DNA of 64,000 nt from Clostridiales bacterium (GTDB lineage Bacteria; Bacillota; Sulfobacillia; RBS10-35), in the NCBI GenBank assembly GCA_018729555.1, contig JAHHQG010000023.1:62001-126000 (forward strand), written 5' to 3'. The translations under genes and the position numbers were made by a program. The notes under the pieces were generated by a model, which had not been told where the DNA came from, made no database searches, and saw nothing but the letters and a program-made list of their open reading frames with translations. Position 1 is the first letter of the stretch. Each line of letters begins with the position of its first letter. Positions 5,726-13,805 of this stretch are shown here, one piece after another.

Positions 5726-6130
5726 TCATTCTACCTTCTCAGGGGCGACCTGGCTTAACGCCCGCCGGAGCTCCGCCTCAGGCCAGACAGCCTGGTAAAC
5801 TTCGCCCGTGGCGATGAGGCGATCCCCCACATAGGCCTCCACGGCGCACACGAGGGTGCGCCCGTCCACCTTCACCGCCCGGGCCTTCACCCGCACCTGG
5901 CTCCCCAGGGGGGCTGCCCCCCGGTGGCGAAGATTGACCCCGATCCCCGCCCCTTCTTCCCCCTCTTCCAGGTGGGGAAGGAGCACCTTGCGGGATGCCC
6001 ACTCGGCGTAATGGACTAGCCACCAGGTGGCCAGGACCGGATGGACGACCCGGCCTTCGAAGGCCGCTTCCATCCCCGGTATCACCGTGAAGACCACTTC
6101 CTCCGCATAACCCTCGGGTATGGGCCGCAT
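5726..6130 (-). CDS. FlK-like hotdog thioesterase
   Basis: 134-residue single-hotdog protein. Its PVLATWWLVHYAEWASRK segment matches fluoroacetyl-CoA thioesterase-type (FlK) proteins, and Thr35, Glu43 and His69 keep exactly the 8- and 26-residue spacing of the FlK catalytic residues Thr42, Glu50 and His76. It is the last gene of the paa cluster, 1 bp after paaD, where many organisms have a PaaI-type thioesterase. Its job may be to release CoA from dead-end or toxic acyl/aryl-CoA intermediates; the true substrate cannot be read from sequence. Confidence 0.85.
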   Translation of the reverse strand: MRPIPEGYAEEVVFTVIPGMEAAFEGRVVHPVLATWWLVHYAEWASRKVLLPHLEEGEEGAGIGVNLRHRGAAPLGSQVRVKARAVKVDGRTLVCAVEAYVGDRLIATGEVYQAVWPEAELRRALSQVAPEKVE

Positions 6131-6131
6131 C

Positions 6132-6596
6132 TTAAAGTTCCTTCATCTTCTCAAAGGGATTGCGGCAGTTCCGGCAGTAATAGATGCTCCGGCAGCGGGT
6201 CGGGCCAAAGGCCGCCTCCATGACGGCATCGCTGGAGCCGCAGTAGGGGCAGGTGACGCCTTCCGCCGGCTTGGCCTTGGGCGGCTGCGGAGGCGCGATG
6301 CCGAAGGCCTTCAGCTGCGCCCTCCCCGCCTCGGTGATGCGGTCGGTGGACCAGGCGGGGGACAGGCGAAAGCGCACCGCCACCTCCTCCACCTGAGGAA
6401 GGGTGCGGGCTTTTTCCATCACTTCCGCCCGGATGATGTCCAGGGCGGGGCATCCCGTAAAGGTGGGGAGAAGGTCGATCTCCAGGCGCCCCCTGTCGAA
6501 GCGGATCGCTTCCACCAACCCTAGATCCACGATGTTTAAGGTGGGGATTTCGGGATCCTTCACCTCTTTCAGGAGCTCCAGGACCACATCCCGCAT
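6132..6596 (-). CDS. paaD: PaaD, phenylacetyl-CoA epoxidase maturation factor
   Basis: 154 residues: an N-terminal DUF59/MIP18-like domain (DPEIPTLNIVDLGLV, then a conserved Cys in TFTGCPA) and a C-terminal zinc ribbon with Cys116, Cys119, Cys141 and Cys144 (CPYC and CRNC). PaaD is the accessory protein of the PaaABC(E) ring-epoxidase and probably helps assemble its metal centre. It follows paaC by 12 bp. No paaE reductase gene is next to it, as in some thermophile paa clusters. Confidence 0.93.
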   Translation of the reverse strand: MRDVVLELLKEVKDPEIPTLNIVDLGLVEAIRFDRGRLEIDLLPTFTGCPALDIIRAEVMEKARTLPQVEEVAVRFRLSPAWSTDRITEAGRAQLKAFGIAPPQPPKAKPAEGVTCPYCGSSDAVMEAAFGPTRCRSIYYCRNCRNPFEKMKEL

Positions 6597-6608
6597 GGAC
6601 CCACCTCC

Positions 6609-7370
6609 TCACCAGCTGGCCGCAGGATCGCTGCGGTAGACTTCGGAAAGGGCTTGGAGAAGCTCATCCAGATGAGGGGTATGGACGCCCCGGCGCCCCC
6701 CCGGCTCCGCCGGGAGGTCCAGGCTCTTGGGAACAAAAGCCTCCAGCCCCAGGGGCCGGAGAAGCCCCGCCCAGGCTTCCGCCCACTCCGCAAACCACGC
6801 CCGGGGCGGACTGGGGAGGAGCCCTTCCGCCACCGCCTCCCCGTCCCCCCGGCCCTCTTCAAAGAGGCCCGGCACATCCTTCAAGACCGCCTGGAGGGCC
6901 TGGTGGAGCCTCTCCCGGGCTTCTCCCTCGCCCCTGGCCAGGCGCTCCAGCCAGAGGCGACCGTGGGCCAAATGGTAGGTCTCTTCCCGGCGGATCCGTT
7001 CCACCGCCTCGGAAAGCGGCTTGTAAGAGGAGCGGGCCATCTGCCGCAGGCGCACATCGTCGAAAAGGTCGTAGGCCACATGGCGGACCACGGTAAAGGC
7101 CCAATCGCCTTTGGGCCTTTCCAAAAGCCACGCGTTCCGCCATTCCCCGGGCTCCCGCATAAAGGCCAACCGGTCGGGATCTTCCCCCGTGAGGTCCTTC
7201 AGAAGCTCGAGGTAAAGGGCCGCATGGGCGATCTCATCCTGGGCGATGGAGCTGATGGCGATGTCCTCTTCGATGAAGGGGGCAAAGGCCGTCCATTCCG
7301 AATCCCGGTGTCCCAGGGCCAGCTCATCGTCGGCGGCCCGCAAAAGGATCTCCCGCAAGGCCTCTTTCAT
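6609..7370 (-). CDS. paaC: PaaC, phenylacetyl-CoA epoxidase structural subunit
   Basis: About 253 residues of the PaaA/PaaC ferritin-like helical family. The N-terminal part (ADDELALGHRDSEWTAFAP, then EEDIAISSIAQDEIAHA) is typical of PaaC, the non-catalytic partner of PaaA that stabilises the epoxidase. I start it at the ATG at 7370, which overlaps the paaB stop as ATGA and has GGAGGGG/GGAGAAAGG upstream, rather than at the earlier in-frame codon at 7400 inside paaB. Confidence 0.95.
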   Translation of the reverse strand: MKEALREILLRAADDELALGHRDSEWTAFAPFIEEDIAISSIAQDEIAHAALYLELLKDLTGEDPDRLAFMREPGEWRNAWLLERPKGDWAFTVVRHVAYDLFDDVRLRQMARSSYKPLSEAVERIRREETYHLAHGRLWLERLARGEGEARERLHQALQAVLKDVPGLFEEGRGDGEAVAEGLLPSPPRAWFAEWAEAWAGLLRPLGLEAFVPKSLDLPAEPGGRRGVHTPHLDELLQALSEVYRSDPAASW

Positions 7371-7663
7371 GCCTTTCTCCCCTCCTGGAGCCGCCGCCAC
7401 TTCTCCACTGTCTTCCGGTACCCGATGCCCAGCCGGTAGCTGCGGTCGGTGTAGGTCTTGAGCATGGGGGCATCTTCCTCGGTGGTCCGCCTCATGGCGG
7501 CCCGGGGGGCCACCCAGAGGCTCCGGTACTCCCCGCGGCGGGTAAAAGCTTCCTTGGCGAGGAGGTAGGCCATGTCCACATCCCCCGCCAGGACGCTTCC
7601 CACATGGACGTGGGGATCGCCGCTCTTCTCTTGGCCGAAGACCTCAAAGACCTGGAGGTTCAC
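7367..7663 (-). CDS. paaB: PaaB, phenylacetyl-CoA epoxidase subunit
   Basis: 98 residues with the PaaB pattern: QVFEVFGQEKSGDPHVHVGSV near the start and EYRSLWVAPRAAM in the middle. PaaB is the small bridging subunit of the PaaABCE complex, which epoxidises the aromatic ring of phenylacetyl-CoA. It overlaps paaA by 4 nt and paaC by 4 nt, so subunits are made in a coupled way. Confidence 0.95.
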   Translation of the reverse strand: MNLQVFEVFGQEKSGDPHVHVGSVLAGDVDMAYLLAKEAFTRRGEYRSLWVAPRAAMRRTTEEDAPMLKTYTDRSYRLGIGYRKTVEKWRRLQEGRKA

Positions 7664-8589
7664 GCCACCCTCACCTCCTGGGCAAGGAGGGCCCGCACCC
7701 AGCGGCCGCCTTCGTGGGCCAACCGCCGCAACGCCAGCCGCTCTTGGGTGAGGGGCCCCTTCCCCTGGACCACCTGCCAGAACTCATCCCACCCGGGATC
7801 GCTGTAATGCCACACCCCCTGGTCGTCCTTGTAGATGTGGGGATCGGGCACCTGAAGGCCCATACCCCAGATCTTGGGGACATACCGGTTCAAAAACTGC
7901 TGGCGCAGCTCCTCGTTGCTCTTGATGCGGATCTTCCAGCGCCGGGCCTTTTCCAGATTGGGGGAATCCTGGTCGGGCGGTCCGAAGAAGTGGAGGAGGG
8001 GCCGCCACCAGCGGTTGAGGGCATCCTGGAGCATGGCCTTTTGGGCCGGGGTCCCCCCCGCCAAGGTGAGGACGATATCCTCCCCATGCTTCAGGTGGAC
8101 GGCTTCTTCGGAGCAGATCCGCTTCAGGATCCGGGCATAGGGGCCGTAGCTGGTCTCGAGAAGGGCCGACTGGGTGATAAGGGCCGCCCCGTCCACAAAG
8201 AAGGCGATGACCCCCACATCGGCCCAGGTGGGGGCAGGGTAGCTGAAGACGTTGTGGAATTTCGCCTTTCCCGCGATGAGGTCCGCCAGGAAATCTTCCC
8301 GCGTCTTCCCCAAAGGCGCCGCCAGATCTTCTGCCACCCGGTAGAGAAGCTGGGCATGGCCGACTTCATCTTGGACCTTGGCCAGGACCGCCAGCTTGCG
8401 CTGCAGGGTGGGCGCCCGGGTGATCCACTCCCCTTCGGGAAGGGCTCCCATGATCTCCGAGTTGGCATGGGTTAGGATGAGGCGCAGAGCCTGCTGCCGG
8501 TACTCCGCCGGCATCCAGTCGTCGGCCTCGATCTTCTCGCCCCGGGCGATCTTCGCTTCGAACTCCATGAGCCGCTCCATCTCATCCAT
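7660..8589 (-). CDS. paaA: PaaA, phenylacetyl-CoA epoxidase catalytic subunit
   Basis: About 309 residues, the diiron oxygenase subunit of the phenylacetyl-CoA epoxidase. Ferritin-like helices carry acidic and His ligands (KVQDEVGHAQLL and SEEAVHLKHGED). The reaction turns phenylacetyl-CoA into its 1,2-epoxide using O2. The ATG at 8589 is chosen because GGAGGG lies 7 nt upstream and it overlaps the tetR stop; an earlier in-frame start at 8619 would lie inside tetR. Heads the paaABCD part of the operon. Confidence 0.96.
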   Translation of the reverse strand: MDEMERLMEFEAKIARGEKIEADDWMPAEYRQQALRLILTHANSEIMGALPEGEWITRAPTLQRKLAVLAKVQDEVGHAQLLYRVAEDLAAPLGKTREDFLADLIAGKAKFHNVFSYPAPTWADVGVIAFFVDGAALITQSALLETSYGPYARILKRICSEEAVHLKHGEDIVLTLAGGTPAQKAMLQDALNRWWRPLLHFFGPPDQDSPNLEKARRWKIRIKSNEELRQQFLNRYVPKIWGMGLQVPDPHIYKDDQGVWHYSDPGWDEFWQVVQGKGPLTQERLALRRLAHEGGRWVRALLAQEVRVA

Positions 8590-9151
8590 GGACCATCCCT
8601 CCGATCCCTTCCGTGGCATAGCGGTAGAAGCGGCGGGCCAGATCCTCCGGGCTCAAGGCCCCCTCCGGCCGGTACCATTGGTACATCCAGTTGAGCCCCC
8701 CCAGGATCCAGCGAACGGCCAGCCGTTCATCGGCCCTGGGAAAAGCATCCTTCACCAGCCGGCGCCAGAGCTCCTCGTAGCGATGCCGGAGGGAGAGGAT
8801 CTCTTCCCGGGCTTCCCCGTGGAGGTGCTGCCACTCGTGGAAGAAGACGCTGGCCGCCGGGAGGTGGTCGGCCACCACCCTCGCGTGGGCCACAAACGCC
8901 CGTTCCAGCTTCTCCAAGGGGGAACCGGACGCCTCTTGAAGGGGTTCCAACGCCGAGAGAAAGGCCTGGGCCGCCTCCAGGGTGATGCCGTAAAGGAGTT
9001 CCTCTTTCCGCTCGATGTGGGCATAGAGGCTCCCCCGCTGGATCCCCAGGGCCTCCGCCAGATCTTGGATGGAGGTGCCGTGGTACCCCTTGGTACGGAA
9101 AAGTTCGGCCGCGACGGCGTAGAGCTCTTCCTGGCGACGGGTCCGAGCCAT
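8582..9151 (-). CDS. paaR: TetR-family regulator of the phenylacetate operon (PaaR-like)
   Basis: About 189 residues. A TetR helix-turn-helix occupies roughly residues 5-55 (LFRTKGYHGTSIQDLAEALGI, then GSLYAHIERKEELL), followed by a TetR_C ligand domain with VFFHEWQHL as found in acyl-CoA-responsive members. It is the first gene of the paa operon, overlaps paaA by 8 nt and lies immediately behind a promoter whose start region contains a perfect palindrome. In Thermus a TetR-type PaaR represses paa genes until phenylacetyl-CoA binds; the same is likely here. ATG at 9151 is chosen; GTG at 9160 is also possible. Confidence 0.85.
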   Translation of the reverse strand: MARTRRQEELYAVAAELFRTKGYHGTSIQDLAEALGIQRGSLYAHIERKEELLYGITLEAAQAFLSALEPLQEASGSPLEKLERAFVAHARVVADHLPAASVFFHEWQHLHGEAREEILSLRHRYEELWRRLVKDAFPRADERLAVRWILGGLNWMYQWYRPEGALSPEDLARRFYRYATEGIGGMVHG

Positions 9152-9165
9152 CCCCACCACCCTAC

Positions 9166-9213: not shown

Positions 9214-10012
9214 GAACCTGGGTGACGGCTTCTTCGATCATCGTCTTCTCGCCTTCGGGAGGCTGTCTTCCGATCCAGAGGAGGTACTCCACGTTCCCCT
9301 TCTTGGCCCCGCGGATGGGGGAAGGGATGACGCCCTTGGGGTAAAGGCCAAGGTGAGGAAGGTTTTCCCAGAAGCGCTCCAAGACAGCCCGGTGGACGGA
9401 GGGATCCCGCACCACGCCTCCCTTTCCCACTTGACGGCGTCCAGCTTCGAACTGGGGTTTCACCAGAAGGACCCCCTGGGCATCCTCTGCCAAAAGGGGC
9501 ACCACCGCAGGAAGGACTTTCTCCAGGCTGATGAAGGAGAGGTCGGCGGAAAGGAACTGGACTTTTTCCGGGACGAGGTGAGATGTCAGGTAGCGGGCGT
9601 TGGTCCGCTCCAGGACCACCACCCGGGGATCGGCCCGCAGGCGGGCATCCAGGCGGCCGTAGGCCACATCCACGGCATAGACCCGGCGGGCACCCCGGAG
9701 CAAAAGGGCGTGGGTAAAGCCCCCCGTAGAAGCCCCCAGGTCCAGGCAGACTTTCCCTTCTACCGAAAGGCCGAAGACCTCAAGGGCATGGTCCAGCTTG
9801 AGGCCTCCCCGGCTGACAAAGGTTTTTTGGCGCGGCTTCAGCTCCACCGGATCCTCCGGCGCCACGGGCTGGCTGGGCTTGAGGGCCCGTTGCCCCTTCA
9901 CGTAGACTTCCCCCGCCAGGATGGCCGCCTGGGCCTTTTGCCGGGAGGGAAAGATGCCCCGCGCCACCAGCTCCAGATCCAGGCGGCGCTTCTTAGGGGA
10001 TTCGGAGCCCAT
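9185..10012 (-). CDS. tlyA: TlyA-family rRNA 2'-O-methyltransferase
   Basis: About 275 residues: an N-terminal S4 RNA-binding domain (RLDLELVARGIFPSRQKAQ to about residue 65) and a FtsJ-like methyltransferase domain with the SAM-binding CLDLGASTGGFT. The family methylates rRNA ribose; the Bacillus homologue is YqxC. The ATG at 10012 is chosen, overlapping dxs by 20 bp; the open frame up to 10132 lies wholly inside dxs. Next to dxs as in many Bacillota. Confidence 0.93.
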   Translation of the reverse strand: MGSESPKKRRLDLELVARGIFPSRQKAQAAILAGEVYVKGQRALKPSQPVAPEDPVELKPRQKTFVSRGGLKLDHALEVFGLSVEGKVCLDLGASTGGFTHALLLRGARRVYAVDVAYGRLDARLRADPRVVVLERTNARYLTSHLVPEKVQFLSADLSFISLEKVLPAVVPLLAEDAQGVLLVKPQFEAGRRQVGKGGVVRDPSVHRAVLERFWENLPHLGLYPKGVIPSPIRGAKKGNVEYLLWIGRQPPEGEKTMIEEAVTQVLDTGAVRPL

Positions 10013-11906
10013 AGGCCCGACGGGCTCCCTCCGCCGCCGCCAGGAGTTCCTTCGCCGCCCGGGCGATGCCTTCGGCATCCAGGCCCATCTCCCGCCGCTG
10101 CTCGTCGGGATGGCCGTGGGGGATGTAGGCATCAGGGTAGCCCAGGATGCGATGGGCCACGTGGAAGAGCTGCCGGGAGCTCAAAAGCTCCAGGACTGCC
10201 GACCCAAAGCCCCCCGCCCGCACCCCGTCTTCCACCGTCACCACCGCCCGAGTCGCTTCCGCCCAGCGAAGGATCAAGGCTTCATCCAGGGGTTTGGCAA
10301 ACCGGGCATCGATGACGGCGGCGGAGATGCCCTCCCGCTCCAAAAGGTCTGCCGCCTCCAGGCAGCGATAGACCAGAGGCCCAAGGCCGATGAGGGTGAC
10401 GTGGCGACCCTTCCGCAGGAGCTCCCCTTCTCCCACCCGGATGGGGCGCGGCGGGCGGGGCGTTCCTTCTTCGGCCGCTCCCCGGGGATACCGGAAAGCG
10501 ATGGGCCCGGGGTGCTCCACCGCCAGGCGCATCATATCCCGGAGCTCATAGCGATCCCGGGGCTGCATCACCACAAAGTTGGGGATATTCCTCAGATAGG
10601 CGATATCCCACATCCCCTGGTGGCTGTCGCCGTCGGCCCCCACCAACCCCGCCCGATCGATAGCAAAGGTCACGGGGAGGTTCATCCGGCCCACGTCATG
10701 GATGAGGCCGTCGTAGGCCCGCTGCAAAAAGGTGGAGTAGATGGCCACCACGGGCCGAAGGCCCCCCAGGGCCAGCCCTGCCGCAAAGACGACCGCATGG
10801 AGCTCCGCGATCCCCACGTCGAAAAACCGATCGGGGAAGGCTTCCTTGAAGGCTGCCGTTCCCGTCCCGTCGGGCATGGCCGCCGTGATGGCCACCAGAT
10901 CGGGCCGCTCCTTCCCCAAGGCCACCAGCTCCTGGGAAAAGACCTTGGTCCAGTCGGGAGGCGCCTCCCCTTTCTCCGGCACCTTCTCTCCCGTAAGAGG
11001 AAAGGGCTTTACGCTGTGGCCCCCGTCGGGAGCCCTTTCGGTCATCGGGAACCCCTTTCCCTTGACGGTCTTCACGTGGACCAGCACCGGTCCCCGGATG
11101 TTCTTCGCCTGGCGAAGGGCGGTCCTCAGGGACGGGATATGGTGGCCGTCCACCGGCCCCAGGTAGGTGAAGCCCATCTCTTCGAACCACATGCCGGGGA
11201 TGAGGAAATACTTGAGGCTGTCTTTCATCCGCTCCAGGGTCCGCACCATCGCCGGCCCGATGTGGGGGATGTGGCTCACCTTCTCGGTGAACTGATCCCG
11301 CAGCTCCCGGTAGGTCTTCATGCTGCGGATCCGGCTGAGGTAGAGGTGGATGGCCCCCACGTTGGGGGCGATGGAAAAGGAGTTGTCGTTGAGGATGACG
11401 ATGAGGTCCGTCCCCAGGGAGCCGGCGTTGTTGAGGCCCTCATAGGCGAGGCCTCCCGTCAGGGCTCCATCGCCCACCACCGCCACCACCCGGTAGTCTT
11501 CGCCTTTGAGGTCCCGGGCCTTGGCATAGCCCAGAGCCCCCGACACGCCCGTTGAAGCATGGCCAGCCTCCCATACGTCGTGGGGGCTTTCCTTGCGGCG
11601 CAAGAACCCGCTGATGCCACCGGGCTGGCGGAGGGTGTGAAACTGGTGGAGGCGGCCTGTCACCAGCTTATGGGGATAGGCCTGATGCCCCACGTCCCAG
11701 ACGATCTTATCCCGAGGGCTTTCAAACTCCGCGTGAAGGGCCAGGGTCAGCTCCACCACCCCCAAGCCCGCCCCCAGGTGGCCTCCGTTCTTGGAGGTGG
11801 TCTCAATCATGATGCGGCGGACCTCCCCGGCCAGCTCCTGCAGCTCCTGATCCGTCAGGCGGCGCAGGTCCTCCGGGAGCTTGAGATCTTCCAGGCGCAA
11901 CGTCAT
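9993..11906 (-). CDS. dxs: 1-deoxy-D-xylulose-5-phosphate synthase
   Basis: 637 residues, full length for the family. N-terminal KNGGHLGAGLGVVELTLALH, the thiamine-diphosphate motif GDGALTGG near residue 148, a transketolase pyrimidine domain (DVGIAELHAVVFAAGLALGGLRP) and the C-terminal domain are all present. It condenses pyruvate and glyceraldehyde 3-phosphate in the first step of the MEP isoprenoid pathway. ATG with GGAGG 8 nt upstream. It lies downstream of the OLE-type RNA and its terminator, and has its own candidate extended -10 promoter. Confidence 0.97.
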   Translation of the reverse strand: MTLRLEDLKLPEDLRRLTDQELQELAGEVRRIMIETTSKNGGHLGAGLGVVELTLALHAEFESPRDKIVWDVGHQAYPHKLVTGRLHQFHTLRQPGGISGFLRRKESPHDVWEAGHASTGVSGALGYAKARDLKGEDYRVVAVVGDGALTGGLAYEGLNNAGSLGTDLIVILNDNSFSIAPNVGAIHLYLSRIRSMKTYRELRDQFTEKVSHIPHIGPAMVRTLERMKDSLKYFLIPGMWFEEMGFTYLGPVDGHHIPSLRTALRQAKNIRGPVLVHVKTVKGKGFPMTERAPDGGHSVKPFPLTGEKVPEKGEAPPDWTKVFSQELVALGKERPDLVAITAAMPDGTGTAAFKEAFPDRFFDVGIAELHAVVFAAGLALGGLRPVVAIYSTFLQRAYDGLIHDVGRMNLPVTFAIDRAGLVGADGDSHQGMWDIAYLRNIPNFVVMQPRDRYELRDMMRLAVEHPGPIAFRYPRGAAEEGTPRPPRPIRVGEGELLRKGRHVTLIGLGPLVYRCLEAADLLEREGISAAVIDARFAKPLDEALILRWAEATRAVVTVEDGVRAGGFGSAVLELLSSRQLFHVAHRILGYPDAYIPHGHPDEQRREMGLDAEGIARAAKELLAAAEGARRAYGLRIP

Positions 11907-11943: not shown

Positions 11944-11971
11944 AAAAAAAAGCCGCCTGCGTAGAGGCGGC
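11944..11971 (-). terminator. Intrinsic terminator of the structured RNA gene
   Basis: Minus strand: a 7-bp stem GCCGCCT/AGGCGGC with a 6-nt loop, followed by eight Ts. This is a textbook rho-independent terminator and fixes the 3' end of the RNA gene between ispA and dxs. Confidence 0.9.
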
Positions 11972-12596
11972 CCAGAAAACACGCCACGGGTGGTCGCCGG
12001 ACGAGTAAACATTGCGCCTTAAGGTCCAGCAGGCTTTCCCTGGCATCACCGCTGCGTCGCCGCAACGGCGGTTTCCCTTTATGATGCCACCGGAACGTCG
12101 CCGTATCCGGGGCTGGATTGCCACTTAGTACGCACCGTAATCCTCGCCCGGACTCCCCAAAGAGGGGACAGCCTAGGAGATTTCCTCTCACGGTCGGAGC
12201 CGATCCCTAGCCCTTTTTGCAGACAGGGTTTCTCCGGCAGATGGTTTTCCCCCTGGGCCCCGAGGAAAAACCATGAACCCGGATTCCACCCGGTCCACTC
12301 AGGGCAGGCTACGCTGCACACAGGGTTCCACTGCATGCAGGTTCTTACCCCGCACCCTGGCGCTCTTGACCGCACCAAGGTGGCGGGCCTCCGCGGAGCT
12401 AGGGTGCCGCCTGCATGCCGTTGCAGGGTCCCCCAACTCCTTAACTCCCAGCACCGACCCCCGACTGGGCGTCGGCAGCCGGCACCAGGAACTTCATCGC
12501 TGTGCCCTTTGACGGATTTTTAGGCCCGTCTTCAGGATCGGGCGACCGACTAGGATACTGCGCCACCCGTGGACACATTTTTGGTTTGTCAAGCTC
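11944..12596 (-). ncRNA. ole: OLE-type large structured RNA between ispA and dxs
   Basis: A ~650-nt stretch with no convincing ORF, bounded by its own promoter and a strong terminator. Its two ends contain perfectly complementary 10-mers, CCACGGGTGG (12572-12563) and CCACCCGTGG (11993-11984), 570 nt apart, which would close one large structure. Inside are further stems, such as ATGGTTTTTCC pairing with GGGGAAAACCAT (12241-12274) and GGCATCA pairing with TGATGCC near 12030-12090. OLE RNA, about 610 nt, is known from extremophilic Bacillota and sits in the isoprenoid operon near ispA and dxs. Size, place and long-range pairing fit that class. I could not compare it with the Rfam OLE model, so the class name rests on context and architecture. 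Confidence 0.82.
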
Positions 12597-12602
12597 AAAG
12601 GG

Positions 12603-12632
12603 ATTATAGCAGGAACCGGGGCAAAAAGCCAA
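12603..12632 (-). promoter_or_regulatory. Promoter of the OLE-type RNA
   Basis: Minus strand TTGGCT, 18-bp spacer, then a perfect TATAAT. Transcription would begin near 12596, just after the ispA stop codon. A TTGACA at 12592-12587 further downstream has no matching -10 box. Confidence 0.7.
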
Positions 12633-12663: not shown

Positions 12664-13560
12664 CTACGCCTGCATCTCCCGGGCCGTCGCCACCCTTTGG
12701 GCCATGACGGCGATGATCTCCTGAAGACCCTGGGCCCCATCCCCCAGGGCCAAGGCGGCTTCCCTCGCCTGGCGGAAAAGGCCAAGGGCCTTTTCCCGGG
12801 CTCCCTCCAATCCCAAAAGGGTCACATAGGTGACCCTTCCCCGCTCTTCGTCCAACCCGCCGTCCTTTCCCAAGGTCTCTAAGGTTCCCACCACGTCCAA
12901 CACATCGTCGGCCACCTGATAGCCCAGGCCCATGGGCCCGGCGATGGCTGAAAGGATCGCCTCTTCTTCCGGCGTTGCCCCGGCCGCCAGCCCCCCCAGC
13001 CGAAGGGAGGCCTCCAGGAGCATGCCCGTCTTTCGCCGGTAAAGGCTCTCCAGCTCCGCCTCCTCCGCTTCCCGCCGCTCCAAAGAAAGGTCGTCCTGCT
13101 GGCCCCCCACCAGGCCCCGGGACCCGGCGGACCGCGCCAGGATCCCCACCGCCTTCAGCCCCACCTCCGGCGACGGCCAGGGTGCCCCCGCCAGCCACTC
13201 AAAAGCGAGGGCCTGGAGGGCATCCCCCACCAGGATGGCGGTGGCTTCGCCAAACTTTCGGTGGACGGCGGGAAGGCCGTGGCGGTACTGGGCATCGTCC
13301 ATGGCGGGAAGGTCGTCGTGGACCAGGGAATAGGCGTGGAGGGCCTCCACCGCCCCCGCCACCTGAGCCACCCACGCCGGAGCCCCTTCCCCCCGGATGG
13401 CCTCATAGGCCGCAAAGACCAGGGCGGGCCGGAGGCGCTTTCCCCCTTTTAAGGCGTGGCGCATGGCCTCGTGGAGGAGGCGGGGAGGCTCGTCCGCCGC
13501 GGGAAGGGCCTCTTCGAGAAACGCCTCCACGTCCCTCTTCCAGCGGGAAAGCCGGTCCAT
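12664..13560 (-). CDS. ispA: Geranylgeranyl/farnesyl diphosphate synthase
   Basis: About 298 residues of the trans-prenyltransferase family with both aspartate-rich motifs: DDLPAMD starting at Asp82 and DDVLD at 217-221, plus GGKRLRP near residue 39. It elongates isopentenyl and allylic diphosphates to C15 or longer chains. The ATG at 13560 overlaps the xseB stop (TGATG). The order xseA-xseB-ispA-(RNA)-dxs is the standard isoprenoid neighbourhood in Bacillota. Confidence 0.95.
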   Translation of the reverse strand: MDRLSRWKRDVEAFLEEALPAADEPPRLLHEAMRHALKGGKRLRPALVFAAYEAIRGEGAPAWVAQVAGAVEALHAYSLVHDDLPAMDDAQYRHGLPAVHRKFGEATAILVGDALQALAFEWLAGAPWPSPEVGLKAVGILARSAGSRGLVGGQQDDLSLERREAEEAELESLYRRKTGMLLEASLRLGGLAAGATPEEEAILSAIAGPMGLGYQVADDVLDVVGTLETLGKDGGLDEERGRVTYVTLLGLEGAREKALGLFRQAREAALALGDGAQGLQEIIAVMAQRVATAREMQA

Positions 13561-13805
13561 CAAGCTCGCTCCTCGTCCCCATCAGAAAAGGGATCGAAGG
13601 CGAAGCTTCCTGCCCGCTCCACCAAGATCTCCACCCGCTTTTCCACCTGCTGGAGGCGGGCCTGGCAGAAGCTTACCAGCTCCATCCCCCGTTCGAACGC
13701 CGCGAGGGATTCCTCCAGGGAAATCTGTCCGTGCTCCAGCTTTTCCACGATGGCTTCCAGCTCCTCCAGGGCCTTCTCGAAGGTTAAGGCGCCTTCCTCC
13801 GCCAT
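13560..13805 (-). CDS. xseB: Exodeoxyribonuclease VII small subunit
   Basis: 81 residues with the XseB signature: TFEKALEELEAIVEKLEHGQISLEESLAAFERGMEL split over two helices. It binds XseA to form exonuclease VII, which degrades single-stranded DNA. ATG with GGGAGGCGG upstream. It is separated from xseA by 195 bp, unusual for a pair that normally overlaps. Confidence 0.95.
   Translation of the reverse strand: MAEEGALTFEKALEELEAIVEKLEHGQISLEESLAAFERGMELVSFCQARLQQVEKRVEILVERAGSFAFDPFSDGDEERA

What the first reader, a model, noticed from the sequence alone, without database searches (positions are those of the whole stretch)
11944..12632. OLE-type RNA with complementary ends and no adjacent partner protein gene
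The 650-nt gene-free stretch between ispA and dxs has its own promoter (TTGGCT-N18-TATAAT), a classic terminator, and ends that contain perfectly complementary 10-mers 570 nt apart (CCACGGGTGG near the 5' end, CCACCCGTGG near the 3' end). OLE RNA is known to sit in this isoprenoid operon in extremophilic Bacillota. As I recall, the membrane protein OapA is usually encoded right beside ole; here dxs follows the terminator at once. Either OapA is elsewhere or this RNA uses another partner.
Basis: partly seen in the sequence, partly recalled or inferred. Interest (0 to 1): 0.75.

Follow-up and report, generated by a model that had tools for sequence, protein, structure and literature searches.

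The report
OLE RNA with relocated oapA gene
The gene-free stretch encodes a normal, full-length OLE RNA (a large bacterial stress-response RNA); its usual next-door partner gene, oapA, is not lost but sits elsewhere in this genome, a rare rearrangement shared by a small group of related bacteria.

Summary
Promoter, terminator and complementary 10-mers are where stated. The 10-mers form a terminal helix whose arms covary in relatives (0 of 2000 reshufflings reach the observed pairing), so it is part of the OLE fold. No oapA lies beside it. "Another partner" is not supported: the genome encodes an OapA (217 aa, E 7e-41) on another contig, beside a flagellin gene, plus OapB, an OapC-like L7Ae protein and bS21, and has no CNNM/MpfA hit. 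Adjacency is otherwise nearly universal: in a 300-genome phylum sample all 217 OLE genomes have OapA, and of 116 with both positions printed, 115 have oapA 5-231 nt downstream; this genome is the exception. Four genomes of three related families share the separation, three of them with a common flagellin neighbourhood, and OLE and OapA trees both group them. So oapA probably moved once there and was inherited vertically, and moved independently in one further genus. An ordinary OLE RNP with a rare, mildly interesting gene arrangement.

The parts
11974..12582 (-). OLE RNA, full length (RF01071)
   Evidence: cmscan 476.9 bits, E 7.7e-137, model 1-616/616
12603..12632 (-). sigma-70-type promoter TTGGCT-18-TATAAT upstream of ole
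   Evidence: consensus scan, 10 of 12, 1 found against 0.2 expected; consensus match only, not tested
11950..11973 (-). intrinsic terminator stem after ole (T run follows to about 11942)
   Evidence: terminator scan, 9 pairs, 6 G-C
12563..12572 (-). 5' arm of the terminal helix, CCACGGGTGG
   Evidence: sequence; covariation with the 3' arm in 22 relatives
11984..11993 (-). 3' arm of the terminal helix, CCACCCGTGG
   Evidence: sequence; covariation with the 5' arm in 22 relatives
12664..13563 (-). ispA-type farnesyl diphosphate synthase gene, upstream neighbour
   Evidence: NCBIfam FPPsyn 267.3 bits, just below its cut-off of 275
9993..11906 (-). dxs, immediate downstream neighbour in the place usually held by oapA
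   Evidence: NCBIfam TIGR00204 780.6 bits

Best explanation
The interval encodes a full-length OLE RNA with its own promoter and terminator. The RNA should fold like other OLE RNAs, its ends closed by a terminal helix, and act as the RNA core of the membrane OLE ribonucleoprotein with OapA, OapB, an OapC-like L7Ae protein and bS21. In an ancestor of this genome and two related families oapA moved from the place between ole and dxs to a locus beside a flagellin gene. Both genes were kept and inherited vertically, so the RNP is assembled in trans from two unlinked genes. Shown: RNA identity, terminal helix, presence and position of the partner genes, the shared separation and matching trees. Inferred: transcription, binding, membrane localisation and stress role, carried over from work on Halalkalibacterium halodurans.
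For: OLE match; promoter and terminator; OapA at C19, 140.1 bits, intact 217-aa frame; OapB whose best PDB match is OLE-associated protein B, E 1.3e-10; L7Ae protein matching YbxF structures; bS21; every one of 217 OLE genomes in the phylum sample has OapA; OapA tree groups G000, G002, G004 and G006 with support 0.996, OLE tree the same four with 0.959; flagellin next to the displaced oapA in G000, G004 and G006; the ole-terminator-dxs order is kept in the same-genus genome G001.
Against: OapA of this genome is divergent: 52% different from its nearest relatives against 21-25% for OLE, and several positions invariant in the class profile are changed, e.g. the P of the PFHAM motif and the R of RNADRV. 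No transcript or binding evidence. No OapA was found in the same-genus draft G001, 91% complete.
Confidence: 0.9

Rival explanations
1. The OLE RNA here works without OapA, through another membrane partner; the distant OapA-like gene has taken up a different function.
For: oapA is unlinked and its protein is more divergent than the RNA.
Against: OapA and OLE occur together in every OLE genome of the phylum sample; the two conserved Asp of the LDIVGD motif (the likely equivalents of D100 and D104 of H. halodurans, by position in the alignment) and most other invariant residues are kept; OLE and OapA trees agree for this clade.
Confidence: 0.06
2. Assembly or binning artefact: the separation of ole and oapA comes from a misassembly, or the C19 contig belongs to another organism.
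For: Draft of 70 contigs with an estimated contamination of 7.12%.
Against: ole and dxs are contiguous here and in a same-genus genome. G002, G004 and G006 also have ole and oapA on different contigs and G000, G004 and G006 share the flagellin neighbourhood. OapA of G000 groups with its relatives in the tree. In the independent case G056 both genes lie on one contig about 360 kb apart.
Confidence: 0.02
3. The RNA is a decaying OLE pseudogene in an organism that is losing the system.
For: Loss of the usual neighbour; defective ole genes are reported from organisms that lack OapA (PMC11332333).
Against: Full-length match of 476.9 bits, among the five best scores in its class; terminal helix perfect; OapA, OapB, L7Ae and bS21 genes intact.
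Confidence: 0.02

Closest known systems
OLE RNA and OLE RNP of Halalkalibacterium halodurans (RF01071; OapA, OapB, OapC, bS21)
   Same: Full-length RNA with the family consensus, isoprenoid and sporulation gene neighbourhood, own promoter, genes for all four described partners.
   Different: oapA is not next to ole but on another contig beside flagellin; published work describes ole and oapA as almost always in tandem (PMC9723947).
OLE loci of the same class with tandem ole-oapA (e.g. L004, L007, L015, L022)
   Same: Same order ispA - ole - (oapA) - dxs, same RNA family, covarying terminal helix.
   Different: In these oapA stands between ole and dxs; here dxs follows the terminator at once.
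MpfA / CNNM-domain Mg2+ exporters (PF01595)
   Same: OapA is a distant relative of the CNNM membrane domain; two ole-adjacent OapAs of the class score 21.0 and 26.8 bits.
   Different: No CNNM match is found anywhere in this genome, not even its own OapA, so MpfA does not replace the OLE RNP here.

Membership tests
OLE RNA (RF01071) | Match to the Rfam covariance model above its gathering score (50 bits) | tested here: met
   476.9 bits, whole model
OLE RNA (RF01071) | About 600 nt in a Bacillota gene cluster with isoprenoid, DNA repair and sporulation genes | tested here: met
   609 nt between ispA and dxs; xseA/xseB, folD, nusB and spoIIIA-type ORFs read from the ORF list, by inspection
OLE RNA (RF01071) | Membrane localisation, OapA binding and stress phenotypes | not testable with these tools
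   Known from H. halodurans (PMC9723947, PMC12265935)
OLE RNP complex | OapA encoded in the genome | tested here: met
   C19:141649-142152 (-), E 7e-41 with a profile of ole-adjacent OapAs
OLE RNP complex | oapA in tandem with ole (usual, not strictly defining) | tested here: not met
   dxs follows ole; oapA is on another contig
OLE RNP complex | OapB (KOW protein) encoded | tested here: met
   L051:12981-13268 (+), best PDB match OLE-associated protein B, E 1.3e-10
OLE RNP complex | OapC (YbxF, L7Ae family) encoded | tested here: inconclusive
   L7Ae-family protein between rpoC and rpsL matches YbxF structures, E 2e-11, but scores below NCBIfam equivalog cut-offs, and L7Ae paralogues exist
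OLE RNP complex | bS21 encoded | tested here: met
   PF01165, E 2.5e-18
OapA family (CNNM-related) | This protein aligns with ole-adjacent OapAs over the whole membrane domain and keeps the DxxGD motif | tested here: met
   Profile positions 2-170 of 176, 140.1 bits; LDIVGD kept

The most novel reading that the evidence does not exclude
In this clade the move of oapA to a flagellin locus uncoupled the expression or stoichiometry of RNA and protein, and the divergent OapA now also has a role independent of OLE, or OLE is regulated differently from the tandem arrangement.
Probability: 0.1. Interest if true: 0.5.

Novelty: new member of a known kind. Interest (0 to 1): 0.28.

Why it matters
ole and oapA are described as almost always in tandem (PMC9723947). 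A clade that kept both genes after they were separated is independent comparative evidence that RNA and protein need each other for reasons beyond co-transcription. It is also a warning for annotation: neither Pfam nor NCBIfam recognises this OapA, so claims of OLE without OapA need a class-specific profile. The covarying terminal helix is an element that the RF01071 structure could add.

Tried and rejected
Pfam CNNM (PF01595) on the genome found nothing and alone would have wrongly suggested that OapA is absent; a profile of the class's own ole-adjacent OapAs found it. A seeming joint loss of OLE and OapA in the same-genus genome G001 was rejected: the 3' end of its OLE is present and the match is cut off by the end of the stretch. 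G008 likewise has OLE running off its contig end. Naming the organism through genome contigs failed. The paper library holds no text with both OLE RNA and Thermaerobacter or Symbiobacterium. Other RNA classes such as RNase P and tmRNA were excluded by the Rfam scan. A terminator after ole is not special to the unlinked arrangement: several loci with tandem oapA also have one (L007, L015, L022).

Full report
What is there. The stretch between ispA and dxs on the minus strand holds a full-length OLE RNA: RF01071, 476.9 bits, model positions 1-616, window 12582-11974. It is the only Rfam family above its gathering score in the 64-kb window. A TTGGCT-18-TATAAT promoter lies at 12632-12603 and an intrinsic terminator at 11973-11950; dxs begins at 11906. 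In H. halodurans OLE also has its own promoter and is seen as a ~630-nt RNA (PMC9723947).

The complementary ends. The 10-mers at 12572-12563 and 11993-11984 are exact reverse complements. In 22 OLE RNAs of the same class whose arms could be located automatically, the two ends of each RNA pair better with each other than with the ends of other species: summed pairing score 215.6 against 145.5 +/- 7.2 in 2000 reshufflings, none reaching the observed value. Examples are CAGTAGGTGG/CCACTTACTG, GGTGGGTGGC/GCCACCCACC and CCACGGGTGG/CCACCCGTGG. Close relatives make the reshuffled pairs more alike, so the test leans to the cautious side. Thirteen other sequences were left out because the simple anchor motifs were not found. 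The helix is therefore a shared part of the OLE fold in this class. RF01071 leaves these end positions unpaired. Published models name a P1 in domain 2 (PMC12265935); that is probably this helix, but the figure could not be checked.

Where OapA is. In 25 of the 30 OLE loci fetched from the class a membrane protein gene of about 200 codons follows ole directly. These proteins form one family, and the two that were scanned resemble the CNNM domain weakly, as published for OapA (PMC11332333). A profile of 15 of them (A1) finds one OapA in this genome: C19:141649-142152 (-), 140.1 bits, E 7e-41, in an intact 217-aa frame. Pfam's CNNM model finds nothing in the genome, and neither Pfam nor NCBIfam matches this protein, so routine annotation would miss it.

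How unusual the arrangement is. In a 300-genome sample of the phylum 217 genomes have OLE and 223 have OapA; every OLE genome has OapA. For 116 genomes both positions were printed (the outputs list only the best matches, so this is not a random subset); in 115 of them oapA lies 5-231 nt downstream on the same strand, and this genome is the exception. Within the class G000, G002, G004 and G006 (three families of one order) have ole and oapA on different contigs, and so has G038; in G056, of the same genus as G038, both are on one contig about 360 kb apart, which rules out fragmentation as the cause in that case. In G000, G006 and G004 the displaced oapA lies close to a flagellin gene, with a metallo-beta-lactamase-fold gene beyond it (scanned in G000 and G004; alike by inspection in G006). 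The G002 contig is too short to tell. The OapA tree joins G000, G002, G004 and G006 with support 0.996 and the OLE tree joins the same four with 0.959. One relocation followed by vertical inheritance fits these data; the G038/G056 case has other neighbours and is a separate event. The same-genus genome G001 keeps the ole end, terminator and dxs in the same order, although its OLE is cut off in the fetched stretch and no OapA was found in that draft, 91% complete.

The other partners. An OapB gene lies in the ribosomal protein operon after a map-like ORF; its best PDB match is OLE-associated protein B. An L7Ae-family protein between rpoC-like and rpsL-like ORFs matches YbxF structures. bS21 is present. 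No CNNM/MpfA protein is found, in line with the reported anticorrelation of MpfA and OLE (PMC11332333).

Mechanism. The most likely reading is an ordinary OLE RNP assembled in trans: ole transcribed from its own promoter and terminated before dxs, OapA made from a distant gene, with OapB and the L7Ae protein assisting the RNA's folding. Identity, gene content and arrangement are shown. Transcription, binding, localisation and stress function are inferred from H. halodurans. OapA here has diverged more than the RNA (52% different from its nearest relatives against 21-25% for OLE); whether that reflects relaxed coupling is open.

Limits. The assembly is a draft of 70 contigs with an estimated contamination of 7.12%. 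The tools did not name the organism. The contig lengths of two class members, 3,566,135 and 2,844,696 bp, look like those I recall for Symbiobacterium thermophilum and Thermaerobacter marianensis; that is memory, not a test. The automatic gene calls used for neighbourhoods are simple ORF picks, and only the proteins scanned have a database basis for their names.

Noticed in passing
L037:8727-10201; L039:6914-10003; L040:7229-10303: The displaced oapA lies next to or near a flagellin gene in three genomes of three families, with galU- or epimerase-type sugar nucleotide genes around it; whether the neighbourhood means anything for function is unknown.
   Followed up: partly
L042 and L043 (G038:C65, G056:C1): A second, independent separation of oapA from ole in one genus of the class, beside what look like electron-transfer flavoprotein and transporter genes.
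   Followed up: partly
G167, G172, G267, G292, G315, G317 (phylum sample): Genomes with an OapA-profile match but no OLE match; the printed positions of G172, G292 and G315 begin within about 220 nt of a contig start, so OLE may lie beyond the contig; G167 and G317 are weak matches (6e-11, 7e-6); G267 has a strong match (1e-52) and was not examined.
   Followed up: no
RF01071 model ends (about positions 17-22 and 597-602): The Rfam consensus leaves the ends unpaired although they form a covarying helix in this class.
   Followed up: yes
window 5726-9160 (minus): A run of ORFs that read like a phenylacetate degradation cluster (paaA/B/C/D-like) with a TetR-like regulator, downstream of dxs and tlyA; names by inspection only.
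   Followed up: no
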